DNA of 64,000 nt from contig NZ_SZZH01000001.1 in the NCBI RefSeq assembly GCF_005298075.1, positions 186,001 through 250,000 on the forward strand, read 5' to 3'. The position numbers and the translations under genes were made by a program. The notes below the pieces were generated by a model. That model was not told the origin of the DNA. It searched no databases and saw only the letters and a program-made list of their open reading frames with translations. Source of the stretch: Nakamurella flava. Lineage in GTDB: Bacteria > Actinomycetota > Actinomycetes > Mycobacteriales > Nakamurellaceae. Below, in pieces: positions 2,211 through 6,485 of this stretch. The stretch's first letter is position 1. Each line of letters starts with the position of its first letter.

Positions 2211-3491
2211 GTGACCCTGCTGCCCGCGCCCCCGTCCATCGCCGACGGCGCCACCACCGCCGATGTCATCGCGTGGGTAGCGACCCATCTCGGTGACCTC
2301 ACCCGCGAGGGCCCGGAGGGCGTGCGGGCCGGTGCGTTCCGGGGCGGGCAGTCCGCCGCCGACGCGGCCCTCGCCGCCCTGGACATCACCGGCTACGCCC
2401 GCACCCGCAACACCGTGCTGCCGGTCGATCGGCGCGGGGCCAGCCGGATATCGCCGTACATCCGGTACGGGCTCACCCCGCTCCGGCAGGTGTGGGACGC
2501 GGTGGCCGACGCGCCGACGGCCGACCGCGGCAAGTACCGCGACGAATTGCTGTGGCAGGAGTACGCCCGGCACCTCTACGCCCGGGTCGGCGGCGCGAAC
2601 GGAGAGGCGCTGCGCCGGCGGCAACCGCATCCGGACCCGGCGTGGGCCGACGACCCGTGGCCGACCGAGATGGCGTGCATGGCCGCGGTGACCGGCGAAC
2701 TGCACGAGGACGGCTGGGTCGTCAACCAGACGCGGATGTGGCTGGCCTCGCAATGGGCCGTGCGGGCCGGGGCCGACTGGCGGCGAGGCGAGGACGAGAT
2801 GTTCGCCCACCTGCTCGACGGGTCCCGGGCCGCGAACCGGCTCGGCTGGCAGTGGACGGTGGGTACGGGCAGCGGCAAGGCCTACGGCTTCAGCCGGTGG
2901 CAGGTGGAAAAGCGGGCCCCCCAGTTGTGCCGATCGTGCCCGCTGAACACTCGCTGCCCGATCCAGGACTGGCCGAAGGGACAGCTGGGCCCATCGGTCG
3001 ACGGGCCCGAGCTGAGCGGGGTCATCCCGGCCGGCCCGGCGGAGGTCGAAGGGACCGGGACGGACGCCGACACCGTGTGGCTCACCGCGGAGAGCCTGGG
3101 GACCTCGGACCCGGCGCTGGCGGCGGACGACGAGCGGCCGGCCGTCTTCGTGTTCGACGCCCCGCTGCTGGCCAGGCTCCGGCTCTCCGGCAAACGCCTG
3201 GTGTTCCTGGCCGAGACCCTCGGTGAACTGGCGGCCAGCCGGCCGGTGGAGGTGCGCCGGGGCTCGGTGGTCGACGAGTTGGCCGGCCGCCCGATGGCCG
3301 CCACCTGGACGCCCGTCCCCGGCTGGGCCGAACGGGCCCGCACCCTGCAGCCGGTGGAGGTGCACCCGTGGCCCTGGCTGGTCCGGCCCGGTCCGGCGTC
3401 GTTGCGGTCGTTCTCGTCGTGGCGTCGGGACCTGCGGATCACCCGCGCGCCGGCCACCGCGCGCCGCGGTCGAGCAGGGTCTCGTCGGTGA
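2211..3491 (+). CDS. Photolyase/cryptochrome-like protein with FAD domain first (apparent circular permutation)
   Basis: Flavoprotein of about 426 residues related to DNA photolyases and cryptochromes. The FAD-binding helical domain comes first (about 20-260), with KYRDELLWQEYARHLY, then WVVNQTRMWLASQW, then LLDGSRAANRLGWQWTVGTG, all matching the flavin-pocket blocks of the family. Where photolyases normally carry the RIFNP block, this one has a cysteine cluster LCRSCPLNTRCP (C240, C243, C249). After it comes a segment from about 285 that resembles the antenna-binding Rossmann domain normally at the N-terminus (VWLTAESLGTSDPALAA, then PAVFVFDAPLL). Start choice is uncertain: GTG at 2193, 2205 and 2211 are all possible; 2211 follows AGGG at a good distance. 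The 3' end overlaps the converging hydrolase gene by 53 bases. DNA repair by light is likely but not proven. Confidence 0.75.
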   Translation: MTLLPAPPSIADGATTADVIAWVATHLGDLTREGPEGVRAGAFRGGQSAADAALAALDITGYARTRNTVLPVDRRGASRISPYIRYGLTPLRQVWDAVADAPTADRGKYRDELLWQEYARHLYARVGGANGEALRRRQPHPDPAWADDPWPTEMACMAAVTGELHEDGWVVNQTRMWLASQWAVRAGADWRRGEDEMFAHLLDGSRAANRLGWQWTVGTGSGKAYGFSRWQVEKRAPQLCRSCPLNTRCPIQDWPKGQLGPSVDGPELSGVIPAGPAEVEGTGTDADTVWLTAESLGTSDPALAADDERPAVFVFDAPLLARLRLSGKRLVFLAETLGELAASRPVEVRRGSVVDELAGRPMAATWTPVPGWAERARTLQPVEVHPWPWLVRPGPASLRSFSSWRRDLRITRAPATARRGRAGSRR

Positions 3492-4944
3492 GGCGCAGGG
3501 GGGCCGTGCCCCACGCCGCGGTGACCCCCCGTTCCGGACCGCTCAGGTGCACGTCGACGTAGAGCCGGTGTGGACTCTCTAGGAAGGCGAGGTCCACGCG
3601 AAGACGGGGGGTGCCGTCCCGGCTGGCGGTCACCCCGCCGCTGACCGCGACCGGTGGGGTATCGGGATGGGACTGGGTGTCGGGCTCGACCACCGTCCAC
3701 CGCTCCCCGGTACCGATGGGCACCGTGAGACGGATCCGCCCGTCCTCCAGCCAGGCGACCCGGCAGACGCCGTTGCCGTCGGGGGGCGGGATGGTGACGG
3801 TCAGATCCGTCCCCCGGTGGACGCCCATCCAGCGGTCGTCGACCGGACCGCCGGACGACGCCGGCAGAACCAGATCACGTAGACGTCGTGCGAGGGCATC
3901 ATCGTGGTCGGCCACCCGGGGCTGCAGCGGCACCCGGCGTCGGGCCGACGTCCCGAGTCCCGGCAGCAGGATGTCCCAGACCGCGTCGAGTACGGCCTGG
4001 GTGCGGACGGTTCCCATCGTGGTGACGAGCACGGCGTCGTACTCGGGCAGGACGAGGCAGAACTGGCCGTAGGCGCCGTCACCGCGGTAACCGTGGCGAC
4101 TTCGCCACACCTGGTAGCCGTAGCCGAGACTCCAGTCCGGATGAGGACTTTCGGGGACGAAGCGCGGTCGGCGAACGTCGGCGACCCAACCGGCGGGGAG
4201 CACCTGCCGGCCGTGCCACCGTCCCTCCCGCAGATATAGCAGGCCGAGTTTGGCCACCGCCTCGGTGGTGGCGTGCAGACCGCTGAAGCCCACCGCCCGG
4301 CCCGGTGGGTTCTCGTGCCAGGCCACCGGGCCGATGCCCAGCGGATCGAGCAGGCGGGGCCGCAGGTAGTCCGTCAGGCCACACCCCACGGCCCGCTGCA
4401 GGGCGGCGGCCACCGCGTAGGTGGCGGGCTGGTTGTAGGTGAACCTGCTCCCGGGGGCCGACTCGGGTTCGTGCAGCAGGAATCCGCGCACCGGCTCGTC
4501 CGGGTCGGTCGCACTGGCGTCCAGCACCATGTCGCGGTGGTGTCCGGTCGCCATGGCCAGGGCATCCCGGATGCGGATCTGCCGACTGCCCGGTCCGGTG
4601 ATCTGGTCGGCGAACTCCGGGAAGTGGTCGATGATGCGGTCGTCCAGGCCCAGCCGCCCCTCGGCCTGCGCGAACCCGACCGCCGTCGCCGTGAACGTCT
4701 TGCTCAGCGAGTACAGGTGGTGCACCCGCCCGGCCGAGTATGGCGCCCACCACCCCTCGGCGACCACGGCCCCGCCGCGGACCAGCATGAGGCTGTGCGG
4801 CTCGACCTGGGGGTCCCGTTCGAGTGCGTCCAGGAATTGGGCGACCGCCTCGGCGCGCACCCCCATGGATCCCGGTGAGCGACGGGGGAGCGGCCGCGAC
4901 TCGGTGCCGGCCGCGAGGGAGGCCGAGCCGGCCCCGGTGATCAT
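3439..4944 (-). CDS. Serine hydrolase, beta-lactamase / penicillin-binding-protein fold (copy 2)
   Basis: Class C beta-lactamase-like serine hydrolase of 501 residues. The SxxK motif is SLSK with nucleophile S79 and general base K82, and the second motif is YNQ in FTYNQPATYAVAAAL. A C-terminal beta-rich domain of about 150 residues follows, as in esterase-type members. No signal peptide or lipobox is obvious, so a cytoplasmic location is likely. It is a close paralogue of the gene immediately upstream (44 bases away, same direction), with matching blocks such as VVAEGWWAPY and LYSLSKTFT. Its 3' end overlaps the end of the photolyase-like gene. Substrate is unknown: esters, D-amino-acid peptides or beta-lactams are all possible. 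Confidence 0.85.
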   Translation of the reverse strand: MITGAGSASLAAGTESRPLPRRSPGSMGVRAEAVAQFLDALERDPQVEPHSLMLVRGGAVVAEGWWAPYSAGRVHHLYSLSKTFTATAVGFAQAEGRLGLDDRIIDHFPEFADQITGPGSRQIRIRDALAMATGHHRDMVLDASATDPDEPVRGFLLHEPESAPGSRFTYNQPATYAVAAALQRAVGCGLTDYLRPRLLDPLGIGPVAWHENPPGRAVGFSGLHATTEAVAKLGLLYLREGRWHGRQVLPAGWVADVRRPRFVPESPHPDWSLGYGYQVWRSRHGYRGDGAYGQFCLVLPEYDAVLVTTMGTVRTQAVLDAVWDILLPGLGTSARRRVPLQPRVADHDDALARRLRDLVLPASSGGPVDDRWMGVHRGTDLTVTIPPPDGNGVCRVAWLEDGRIRLTVPIGTGERWTVVEPDTQSHPDTPPVAVSGGVTASRDGTPRLRVDLAFLESPHRLYVDVHLSGPERGVTAAWGTAPLRLTDETLLDRGARWPARG

Positions 4945-4988: not shown

Positions 4989-6485
4989 TCAGCCCAGGGG
5001 TCGGGGCGCTCCCTGGCTGAGGAACGCCTCCTCGGTGAGCCGCAGCGGCTCGGTGCCCCAGGCCGCGGTGACTCCCGCGCGACGACCCGAACGGCTGACC
5101 TCGACGACGAGCCGATGCGGGCTCTCCAGGAACAGGACGTCGATGCGCAGGGTCGGGTCGGCGTCGACCCGCTGGCCGGCCACCATGCCCCAGTTGCCGG
5201 CGCCGACCAGGCCACCGCTGGCCGCCACCGGCGGGTGCGCGGTGTGGTCGTCGGTGCTGGGATCCACGACCTCCCACCGCGTCCCCGAGCCCACCGGGAC
5301 GGTGAACTCCACGGTGCCGTCGTCGATCGTCGCCGTCACCTGGTCTCCGGATGCGGTGACGGCGACGGTCAGGCCGTCGCCGGAGTACGTCCCGGCCCAG
5401 TCCGCCGGGACGGGGTCACCGGCCGATCCGGCCAGGGCGAGACCGGCCAGCCGCTGCCCCAGGGCGTCGTCCGCCACCGCGGCGGCGGCGTCGTCCAGCG
5501 GGCCGTCGGTCAGGGCGGGCAGCAGGTGTTCCCAGGCGGCGTCCAGCACCTGCTGCATGTCGGCGGTCGCCATCGTCGCCGCCAGAACGACGTCCTGCTC
5601 GGGCAGGATGACGCAGAACTGGCCGTAGGCGCCGTCGCCGCGGTAGCCGTGCCGGGCCATCCACACCTGGTAGCCGTACCCCTGCGCCCAGTCCGGATTG
5701 GGCTCCCGCGATGAGTCGACCCGCCGCTCGCGGACCTGCTCGGCCCAGCCGGCCGGGAGGAGCTGCCGGCCCTCCCACACCCCGTCCCGCAGATGCAGCA
5801 GACCGAGTTTGGCGATGGCCTCGGTGGTGGCGTGCAGCCCGGAGAAACCGATGTTCCGCCCGTCCGGGTACTGCTGCCAGCCGACCGGGCCGATACCGAG
5901 CGGGTCGAACAACCGCGGCCGCAGATACTCGGTGAGCGTGCAACCGGCCCGCTTCTGCAGGATCGCGGCCACGCTGTACGTGCCGAGCTGGTTGTAGGTG
6001 AACCAGGTGCCCGGATCGGACTCGGGCTCGTGGAGCAGCAGCCCGCGCACCGGTTCGGCCGGGTCGGTGTGCACCGCGGTCTGGATCATGTCGACGTGGT
6101 GCCCGGTGGCCATGGCCAGCGCGTCACGGATCCGCATGGCCCGCGAACGCGGCCCGGTGATCTCGTCGGCGAACTCGGGGAAGTGGTCGATCAGGCGGTC
6201 GTCCAGATCGAAAAGCCCCTCGGCCACGGCGAAACCGGCGGCCGTCGAGGTGAACGTCTTGCTCAGCGAATACAGCAGGTGCACCCGCTCCGGGGTGTAG
6301 GGGGCCCACCAGCCCTCCGCGACCACGGAGCCGCCGCGCAGCAGCATCACGCTGTGCGGGTCGATGCCCGGCTCGGACTCGAGCACGTTCAGGAACCGTT
6401 CGATCCCGCCACTCGCGACCCCGGCCGAGCGGGGCGAGGTGCGGGGCAGGGCGGACGTGGGCGCGGAGGAGGCGACTGTGCTCAC
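4989..6485 (-). CDS. Serine hydrolase, beta-lactamase / penicillin-binding-protein fold (copy 1)
   Basis: Beta-lactamase-fold serine hydrolase of 498 residues and first gene of a two-gene unit. The SxxK motif is SLSK (S73, K76), the tyrosine motif is YNQ in FTYNQLGTYSVAAIL, and a block GYGYQVWMARHGYRGDGAYG surrounds the late active-site strand. It is collinear over nearly its whole length with the following gene, which points to a tandem duplication. The N-terminus is Ala/Ser/Thr-rich but lacks a clear signal sequence. The start ATG lies 167 bases from the GTG of thrS, which is read the other way. Confidence 0.87.
   Translation of the reverse strand: MSTVASSAPTSALPRTSPRSAGVASGGIERFLNVLESEPGIDPHSVMLLRGGSVVAEGWWAPYTPERVHLLYSLSKTFTSTAAGFAVAEGLFDLDDRLIDHFPEFADEITGPRSRAMRIRDALAMATGHHVDMIQTAVHTDPAEPVRGLLLHEPESDPGTWFTYNQLGTYSVAAILQKRAGCTLTEYLRPRLFDPLGIGPVGWQQYPDGRNIGFSGLHATTEAIAKLGLLHLRDGVWEGRQLLPAGWAEQVRERRVDSSREPNPDWAQGYGYQVWMARHGYRGDGAYGQFCVILPEQDVVLAATMATADMQQVLDAAWEHLLPALTDGPLDDAAAAVADDALGQRLAGLALAGSAGDPVPADWAGTYSGDGLTVAVTASGDQVTATIDDGTVEFTVPVGSGTRWEVVDPSTDDHTAHPPVAASGGLVGAGNWGMVAGQRVDADPTLRIDVLFLESPHRLVVEVSRSGRRAGVTAAWGTEPLRLTEEAFLSQGAPRPLG

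What the first reader, a model, noticed from the sequence alone, without database searches (positions are those of the whole stretch)
2211..3491. Photolyase-like protein with domains in reversed order and a cysteine triad
In photolyases and cryptochromes the Rossmann antenna domain precedes the FAD domain. Here all FAD-pocket blocks come first (residues 20-260), and a Rossmann-like segment that resembles the usual N-terminus (VWLTAESLGTSDPALAA) starts near residue 285. The family RIFNP block is replaced by LCRSCPLNTRCP, which could carry a metal or iron-sulfur site. A circularly permuted photolyase with a new cofactor site would be notable.
Basis: partly seen in the sequence, partly recalled or inferred. 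Interest (0 to 1): 0.68.

Follow-up and report, generated by a model that had tools for sequence, protein, structure and literature searches.

The report
Reverse-order iron-sulfur photolyase, known class
This gene encodes a light-driven DNA-repair enzyme whose two halves are joined in the opposite order from ordinary photolyases and which probably carries an iron-sulfur cluster; the architecture is real, but this class of enzyme has already been described in other bacteria.

Summary
Window 2211-3491 (+) encodes a 426-residue protein with a photolyase FAD domain first (residues 1-256) and an antenna-type Rossmann domain last (about 286-411). The C-terminal part folded alone: all 50 solved entries listed are photolyases or cryptochromes, matched in their N-terminal domain (Z 7.9-10.0). 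In 29 of 32 ordinary photolyases the family profile's C-terminal part matches upstream of its N-terminal part, never downstream. One collinear match spans 78 of 80 named relatives, nearly all Actinomycetota. The cysteine "triad" is three of four invariant cysteines (87 of 87 sequences), matching those of FeS-BCP proteins, the class of PhrB. Lesion-contact residues are CPD-type, so I read it as a CPD photolyase. It is not categorically new: Synechococcus/Cyanobium Phr4+5/Phr6 have the same reversed order and near-identical cysteine spacing (PMC9426592), and SPL/NewPHL is a published inverted class. Possibly under-appreciated: "short" photolyases said to lack the alpha/beta domain can carry it at the other end.

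The parts
2211..3491 (+). reverse-order photolyase gene, 426 aa, GTG start (in-frame GTG at 2205 is an alternative)
   Evidence: many relatives begin with a similar M/V-xx-LPxPP motif; AF2 model mean pLDDT 93.9, pTM 0.92
2211..2978 (+). FAD (catalytic) domain, residues 1-256
   Evidence: FAD_binding_7 35.9 bits; hhalign E 7.3e-27 to the FAD part of ordinary photolyases; Foldseek 1iqr E 3.4e-7; VIA-align Z 16.5 to PhrB 5kcm over model residues 7-262
2676..2678 (+). C156, first proposed Fe-S ligand
   Evidence: invariant in 87 of 87 sequences, window included; aligned with a cysteine in 8 of 8 FeS-BCP rows
2928..2957 (+). C240-x2-C243-x5-C249, remaining proposed Fe-S ligands
   Evidence: invariant in 87 of 87; spacing 83/2/5 in 86 and 82/2/5 in 1; C240/C243 aligned with the FeS-BCP CxxC in 9 of 9 by profile alignment; C249 matches only as a Cys-Pro after a shorter gap
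2544..2546 (+). E112, CPD-type lesion residue (Gln in 8 of 8 FeS-BCP)
2724..2726 (+). N172, CPD-type lesion residue (His in 8 of 8 FeS-BCP)
2778..2849 (+). W190 to W213, stretch bounded by the two invariant tryptophans at the positions of the flavin-proximal triad members (Pro and Met in 8 of 8 FeS-BCP)
   Evidence: the correspondence to E. coli W359 and W382 is recalled numbering
2979..3065 (+). linker, residues 257-285, joining FAD domain to antenna domain
   Evidence: poorly conserved (mean top-residue fraction 0.454); no listed helix or strand in this stretch
3066..3443 (+). antenna-type Rossmann domain, residues 286-411, at the C-terminus
3444..3488 (+). non-conserved basic tail, residues 412-426, low pLDDT, within the overlap with the convergent downstream gene

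Best explanation
It is a photolyase of the reverse-order Fe-S class (SPL / Phr4-5-6 type). Shown here by homology and prediction: an N-terminal photolyase FAD domain, four invariant cysteines in the FeS-BCP arrangement, and a C-terminal domain homologous to the photolyase antenna domain. Inferred: the protein binds FAD and a [4Fe-4S] cluster; on blue light the reduced flavin donates an electron to a cyclobutane pyrimidine dimer bound in a class-I-like pocket (E112, W115, N172, M176) and splits it; flavin reduction runs over a W213-W190 dyad; the Fe-S cluster stabilises the C-terminal part of the FAD domain. Whether the C-terminal domain holds a light-harvesting pigment (8-HDF is my guess, the genome having a possible FO synthase) or only covers the flavin site is open.
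For: Order. Cysteines; PhrB C350/438/441/454 from passages of PMC3204975. CPD-type pocket: Glu 64/64, Asn 64/64, Met 62/64 in the family against Gln, His, Leu in 8/8 FeS-BCP each. Class: reversed order plus C169/C254/C257/C263 in Synechococcus Phr4 (PMC9426592 section 5), i.e. 84/2/5 residues between, against 83/2/5 here. SPL described as CPD enzymes with an Fe-S cluster (passages of PMC9649867). D. shibae NewPHL has 'a mere Trp dyad' (passage of PMC8948257). The antenna part is as conserved as the catalytic part (mean top-residue fraction 0.748 for residues 286-406, 0.741 for 40-256), so it is under selection.
Against: No biochemistry. No Phr4, Phr6, SPL or NewPHL protein named in those papers was held, so membership rests on architecture, cysteine spacing and published descriptions, not on direct alignment. 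Foldseek alone gave the C-terminal model no significant hit (best E 0.01, a viral chain; 4dja E 0.18, prob 0.92). Pfam PF00875 finds none of 64 members. A profile with the two parts swapped did not beat the native one on ordinary photolyases. In the whole-model VIA list an unrelated mitoribosomal chain scores Z 14.4, so Z 14-16 on this helical domain is not specific by itself. MAFFT placed the family CxxC one column off the FeS-BCP CxxC; the profile alignment brings them into register. The authors of PMC9426592 predict Phr4/Phr5 to be a (6-4) photolyase. E112 is not diagnostic alone: 15 of 32 class-I-like sequences have Gln there.
Confidence: 0.82

Rival explanations
1. A (6-4) photolyase: the Fe-S cysteines signal kinship with the prokaryotic (6-4) enzymes and the substrate is the same.
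For: The authors of PMC9426592 predict this for Phr4/Phr5; loss of phr4 lowered UV-C but not UV-B survival, and phr4/phr5 in E. coli protected against UV-C with little effect on UV-B (passages). Same cysteine arrangement as FeS-BCP. Family and FeS-BCP fall together in my tree, support 86/83.
Against: Residues that differ between CPD and prokaryotic (6-4) enzymes are of CPD type. Class-I-like proteins score higher with the family's FAD-domain profile than FeS-BCP do (50.9-86.4 against 23.3-36.1 bits). The tree tool warns that long branches meet at that join.
Confidence: 0.12
2. A cryptochrome-like sensor that has lost repair.
For: The FeS-BCP protein RsCryB is reported to regulate gene expression (passage of PMC9178010). 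In 19 of the 20 carrier genomes the same profile also hits another photolyase-family gene, so repair is often covered elsewhere.
Against: Lesion-contact residues are invariant or nearly so. No conserved neighbour: apart from the gene itself no cluster is shared by more than 7 of 60 loci (my gene caller was crude and found the family gene itself in only 45 of the 60).
Confidence: 0.06
3. The C-terminal domain is an unrelated Rossmann-type domain fused to a photolyase FAD domain.
For: No Pfam hit for residues 279-426 alone at E up to 10; Foldseek result not significant; hhalign covers only the first 71 columns of the domain.
Against: Profile-profile E 2.7e-10; Deinococcus relatives match over 131 columns, E 2.8e-14; all 50 VIA rows are photolyase-family chains; 29 of 32 ordinary photolyases matched in the expected place.
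Confidence: 0.03

Closest known systems
Phr4+Phr5 and Phr6 of marine Synechococcus/Cyanobium (PMC9426592, section 5 read, passages)
   Same: FAD domain first, DNA-photolyase (antenna) domain last; four cysteines, 84/2/5 residues between them in RS9916 Phr4.
   Different: Split into two reading frames in Synechococcus; cyanobacterial; predicted (6-4) by the authors. Sequences not held, so not aligned here.
SPL, short photolyase-like proteins (Xu et al. 2021, msab191; paper not held, seen only through passages of PMC9649867 and PMC9178010)
   Same: CPD enzymes related to class I/III, an Fe-S cluster, no N-terminal alpha/beta domain. Recalled, from no call: the member tested came from Rhodococcus fascians; Rhodococcus/Rhodococcoides relatives are in this family.
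   Different: Described as lacking the alpha/beta domain; here it is present at the C-terminus.
NewPHL (Emmerich et al. 2020, gkaa1147; not held, seen through passages of PMC13274461 and PMC9426592)
   Same: Inverted domain topology; CPD repair in single-stranded DNA reported; Trp dyad.
   Different: Phr7, which PMC9426592 equates with it, lacks the Fe-S cysteines; homology of its Z-domain to the antenna domain is unproven.
FeS-BCP / prokaryotic (6-4) photolyase PhrB (PDB 4dja, 5kcm)
   Same: Fe-S cysteine arrangement; top row of the whole-model VIA list (Z 16.5; 7ykn 16.1 is tied and 1iqr 15.4 close).
   Different: Antenna domain first, cysteine spacing 87/2/12 (8 of 8), different lesion residues.
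Class I CPD photolyase (PDB 1iqr, 1owl, 1dnp)
   Same: FAD pocket and lesion residues; among the best sequence matches in the PDB.
   Different: Opposite domain order, no CxxC in the columns compared, RIFNP stretch present.

Membership tests
Photolyase/cryptochrome superfamily | FAD_binding_7 domain | tested here: met
   64 of 64 family rows match PF03441; window protein above the curated cut-off
Photolyase/cryptochrome superfamily | antenna-type alpha/beta domain | tested here: met
   at the C-terminus
Photolyase/cryptochrome superfamily | bound FAD | not testable with these tools
   needs purified protein
Reverse-order Fe-S photolyases (Phr4/5, Phr6; Fe-S SPL) | FAD domain N-terminal to antenna domain | tested here: met
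Reverse-order Fe-S photolyases (Phr4/5, Phr6; Fe-S SPL) | four cysteines spaced about 84/2/5 | tested here: met
   83/2/5 in 86 of 87, 82/2/5 in 1; reference spacing from PMC9426592
Reverse-order Fe-S photolyases (Phr4/5, Phr6; Fe-S SPL) | sequence clustering with the published members | not tested
   their sequences were not held
Reverse-order Fe-S photolyases (Phr4/5, Phr6; Fe-S SPL) | light-dependent CPD repair, Fe-S cluster in the protein | not testable with these tools
   needs assay
FeS-BCP (prokaryotic 6-4 photolyase) | four Fe-S cysteines in this arrangement | tested here: met
   first Cys 8 of 8, CxxC 9 of 9 by profile alignment; the last Cys corresponds only as Cys-Pro
FeS-BCP (prokaryotic 6-4 photolyase) | PhrB-like (DPRP, PF04244) domain first | tested here: not met
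   PF04244 rings in the own genome only at C1:838771-839406, another gene; no PF04244 match in the window protein at E up to 10
FeS-BCP (prokaryotic 6-4 photolyase) | spacing 86-89/2/12-15 (passage of PMC3204975) | tested here: not met
   83/2/5
FeS-BCP (prokaryotic 6-4 photolyase) | His and Gln at the lesion site | tested here: not met
   Asn and Glu
Class I CPD photolyase | antenna domain first | tested here: not met
Class I CPD photolyase | Trp triad | tested here: inconclusive
   W190 and W213 invariant; no clear counterpart of the third Trp (W145 in 31 of 64, W150 in 57 of 64)
NewPHL | inverted domain order | tested here: met
NewPHL | Z-domain homologous to this C-terminal domain | tested here: inconclusive
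   NewPHL-like Z profile against antenna profile prob 14.7, E 0.0018; score 26.6 against shuffled 95% 18.6, but one of 100 shuffles reached 133.9; against this family's C-terminal profile only prob 0.2
NewPHL | Fe-S cysteines absent (stated for Phr7) | tested here: not met
   four invariant cysteines present here

The most novel reading that the evidence does not exclude
The whole inverted class (Fe-S SPL, Deinococcus forms, NewPHL) descends from a photolyase that already had an antenna domain, which was moved to the C-terminus by circular permutation and, in NewPHL, degenerated into the so-called Z-domain. The 'short' photolyases would then not be antenna-less ancestors of the superfamily; they lack the alpha/beta domain only at the end where it was looked for.
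Probability: 0.35. Interest if true: 0.6.

Novelty: new member of a known kind. Interest (0 to 1): 0.36.

Why it matters
[quoted passage not shown] that NewPHL was placed near the origin too is recalled. A large, well-conserved and mainly actinobacterial set in which that domain is plainly present at the other end weakens the argument from simplicity. It also gives a testable conflict on substrate: CPD by active-site residues here, (6-4) by the prediction in PMC9426592. Natural reversal shows that the two lobes can be rewired, or split into two genes as on one Deinococcus plasmid.

Tried and rejected
Pfam/NCBIfam on the C-terminal part and on the 64 members: only FAD-domain or whole-photolyase models matched; for the window protein the matches lie in the FAD region. 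Foldseek on the C-terminal model was not significant; VIA-align on Foldseek's candidates was clear. A permuted profile (C-part columns before N-part columns) was expected to beat the native one on ordinary photolyases and did not: of the 15 distinct non-family sequences it was ahead in 7 (by 0.1-3.0 bits) and behind in 8 (by 0.9-6.9 bits); a single stretch spanned both parts in only 2 (L029, L031). HMMER adds the two parts of the native profile as separate stretches and the linkers differ, so I do not use it as evidence for the order. Gene neighbourhood: no conserved operon; FeS-BCP-type genes lie in the same locus in L053, L063, L084, L154 and L157. Single origin of the inverted order: the best tree does not hold the inverted proteins together, but holding them together is not rejected (p-AU 0.408); the four-cysteine proteins lie on one side with 90/87, not a strong value. 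Phages: 8 of 50,697 records match, all within residues 75-221; viral contigs: 22 pattern matches, none confirmed as a relative. NewPHL Z-domain homology: inconclusive. That the antenna part is more conserved than the rest was an early impression; on equal terms it is the same. Literature: searches for permuted photolyases showed no such title among the papers listed (13 of 13, 25 of 1,000 and 11 of 11; titles and abstract starts only). The class was found through and the passages, and through leading. E. coli residue numbers, the abstracts of Emmerich 2020 and Xu 2021, and the Rhodococcus fascians origin are recalled, not read.

Rows dropped: one search used 87 of 100 extracted rows (left out: L003, a duplicate of the window; L021 and L049, cut by contig ends; L022, gene broken over two frames; L071, short N-terminal match; then 8 identical rows). 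A1 has 64 rows from 65 under 85% identical: L004 was replaced by the window itself, and L041, whose C-terminal end departs from the family, was left out. FeS-BCP: the 8 rows are those with 20 bits or more in the family's FAD-domain profile; L135 and L136 (both PF04244 loci) fell under it. One search took 9 (L135 included); L136 had no frame with the cysteine pattern I searched for and was not examined further. One search took every sixth of 64 family rows (11) and 32 distinct class-I-like sequences (36 before duplicates were removed). The tree used 14 family rows of 64, 4 Deinococcus, 8 of 9 NewPHL-like, 8 FeS-BCP and 16 of 32 class-I-like.

Full report
What is there. The gene at window 2211-3491 (+) encodes 426 residues. 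It starts 121 bases after the end of a YciI-like gene and its variable tail overlaps a convergent beta-lactamase-family gene by 53 bases. Relatives are common. Of 200 genomes of the order, 19 (own included) have a close homologue in the list: 17 full-length or nearly so, one partial (G005) and one broken over two frames (G009); nearly all other listed matches cover only the FAD region (residues about 14-261) at 27-37% identity, as ordinary photolyases or FeS-BCP would. Of 296 genomes of the phylum 20 have a homologue at E below 1e-150. A scan of named genomes confirmed 264 stretches as relatives, of which the best 80 were kept and seen: nearly all Actinomycetota (Rhodococcus, Williamsia, Nocardioides, Geodermatophilus, Klenkia, Acidimicrobiales, Patulibacter and others) and one Myxococcota MAG. 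More distant relatives lie on four Deinococcus plasmids (31-33% identity).

Domain order. AlphaFold2 with a 64-row alignment gave mean pLDDT 93.9 and pTM 0.92. Foldseek's best hits are photolyases (1iqr E 3.4e-7); VIA-align places residues 7-262 on photolyase FAD domains, best Z 16.5, though one unrelated mitoribosomal chain reaches Z 14.4. Residues 283-411 folded alone gave pLDDT 88.8 and pTM 0.77. Among the chains that Foldseek ranked highest for this piece, VIA-align lists 50 entries; all 50 are photolyases or cryptochromes, matched in the N-terminal antenna domain (49 of 50 rows end at or before chain residue 208; row 18, 6k8i, spans 5-300), Z 7.9-10.0. Foldseek's own E-values for the piece were not significant. 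Profile-profile comparison of the C-terminal part with antenna domains of ordinary photolyases gives prob 96.8, E 2.7e-10, score 64.5 over 71 columns, against a maximum of 23.6 in 100 column-shuffled controls; the Deinococcus C-terminal parts match over 131 columns with E 2.8e-14. The plainest test is of order: with the family profile, 29 of 32 ordinary photolyases show the C-terminal part upstream of the N-terminal part, 0 downstream, 3 no match; in 15 of the 29 the C-part has E below 0.01 for a search of 32 sequences. The same was seen in genome scans in 4 of 4 ordinary photolyases where both parts were listed. A profile with the parts swapped did not score better overall. I conclude that the domain order is reversed with respect to ordinary photolyases. 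Whether the antenna lobe also occupies its usual place in space was not tested.

Cysteines. C156, C240, C243 and C249 are invariant in 87 of 87 sequences, window included. C156 aligns with a cysteine in 8 of 8 FeS-BCP rows. MAFFT set the CxxC one column apart there; profile alignment puts C240 and C243 on the FeS-BCP CxxC in 9 of 9. The last cysteine corresponds only as Cys-Pro at a shorter distance. PhrB has its four cysteines at 350, 438, 441 and 454 (passages of PMC3204975). Residues between: 83/2/5 here (86 of 87; 82/2/5 in one), 87/2/12 in FeS-BCP (8 of 8), 84/2/6 in three fused Deinococcus proteins and 84/2/3 in the split one. No class-I-like row shows the CxxC in the columns printed. 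The 'RIFNP' stretch of class I enzymes is missing, as in the FeS-BCP rows printed.

Substrate and mechanism (inferred). At positions that separate CPD from prokaryotic (6-4) enzymes the family has Glu (64/64), Asn (64/64) and Met (62/64), where FeS-BCP have Gln, His and Leu (8/8 each); class-I-like proteins have Glu 17 and Gln 15 of 32, Asn 32/32, Met 24/32. W213 and W190 are invariant and a third triad Trp is doubtful, which resembles the Trp dyad reported for D. shibae NewPHL (passage of PMC8948257). I therefore expect flavin-dependent CPD repair. The genome also has an ordinary photolyase and a FeS-BCP; no CRY-DASH reaches its cut-off. An 887-residue frame matches CofH at 264.6 bits, under that model's cut-off of 374.1, perhaps a fused FO synthase; the model rings in 11 of 14 control genomes (over the cut-off in 3), so this is only a hint that 8-HDF is available.

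What is known. Reversed order is not new. PMC9426592 (section 5 read; passages) describes Synechococcus phr4+phr5 and Cyanobium phr6 with the FAD domain first, the DNA-photolyase domain last and Fe-S cysteines (RS9916 Phr4 C169, C254, C257, C263). PMC13274461 (passages) says NewPHL/SPL repair CPD in single-stranded DNA and have an 'inverted domain topology', citing Emmerich 2020. [quoted passage not shown] Both primary papers were not held. The window protein is best filed as a new member of this reverse-order Fe-S class.

What may be new. In this family the 'missing' domain is present, at the C-terminus, and as conserved as the catalytic domain (0.748 against 0.741). In Deinococcus sp. QL22 the two lobes are separate overlapping genes, FAD first, antenna second (L173), parallel to phr4/phr5. 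If the NewPHL Z-domain is also a worn antenna domain, the ancestor argument falls for the whole class; my test of that was inconclusive. The FAD-domain tree neither shows nor rejects a single origin of the inverted order, and long branches meet in it.

Noticed in passing
L173:2345-3118 and 3115-3636 (Deinococcus sp. QL22 plasmid unnamed3): The reverse-order photolyase is split into two overlapping genes: FAD domain with four cysteines, then an antenna domain annotated as hypothetical protein (PF00875, 21.6 bits, under the cut-off of 26.6).
   Followed up: yes
window 3439-4944 (-) and 4989-6485 (-): Two tandem beta-lactamase-family (PF00144) genes, convergent with the photolyase gene; the first overlaps the photolyase's variable tail by 53 bases.
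   Followed up: partly
L053, L063, L084, L154, L157: A FeS-BCP-type photolyase gene lies in the same locus as the reverse-order gene.
   Followed up: partly
L170:1498-4075 and L180:567-3144 (Asticcacaulis plasmids): The NewPHL-like gene sits between an NAD(P)-binding protein and a DUF3429 gene; DUF3429 is also next to it in Novosphingobium (L175), and a UbiB-type kinase gene is next to it in Peteryoungia (L177) and Ruegeria (L178).
   Followed up: no
G009:C52:24637-25870 (L022): The family gene is broken over two reading frames in this genome: frameshift, sequencing error, or a split gene as in Synechococcus phr4/phr5.
   Followed up: no
G000:C1:1486789-1489041: 887-residue frame matching CofH below the cut-off, possibly a fused FO synthase (FbiC type).
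   Followed up: partly
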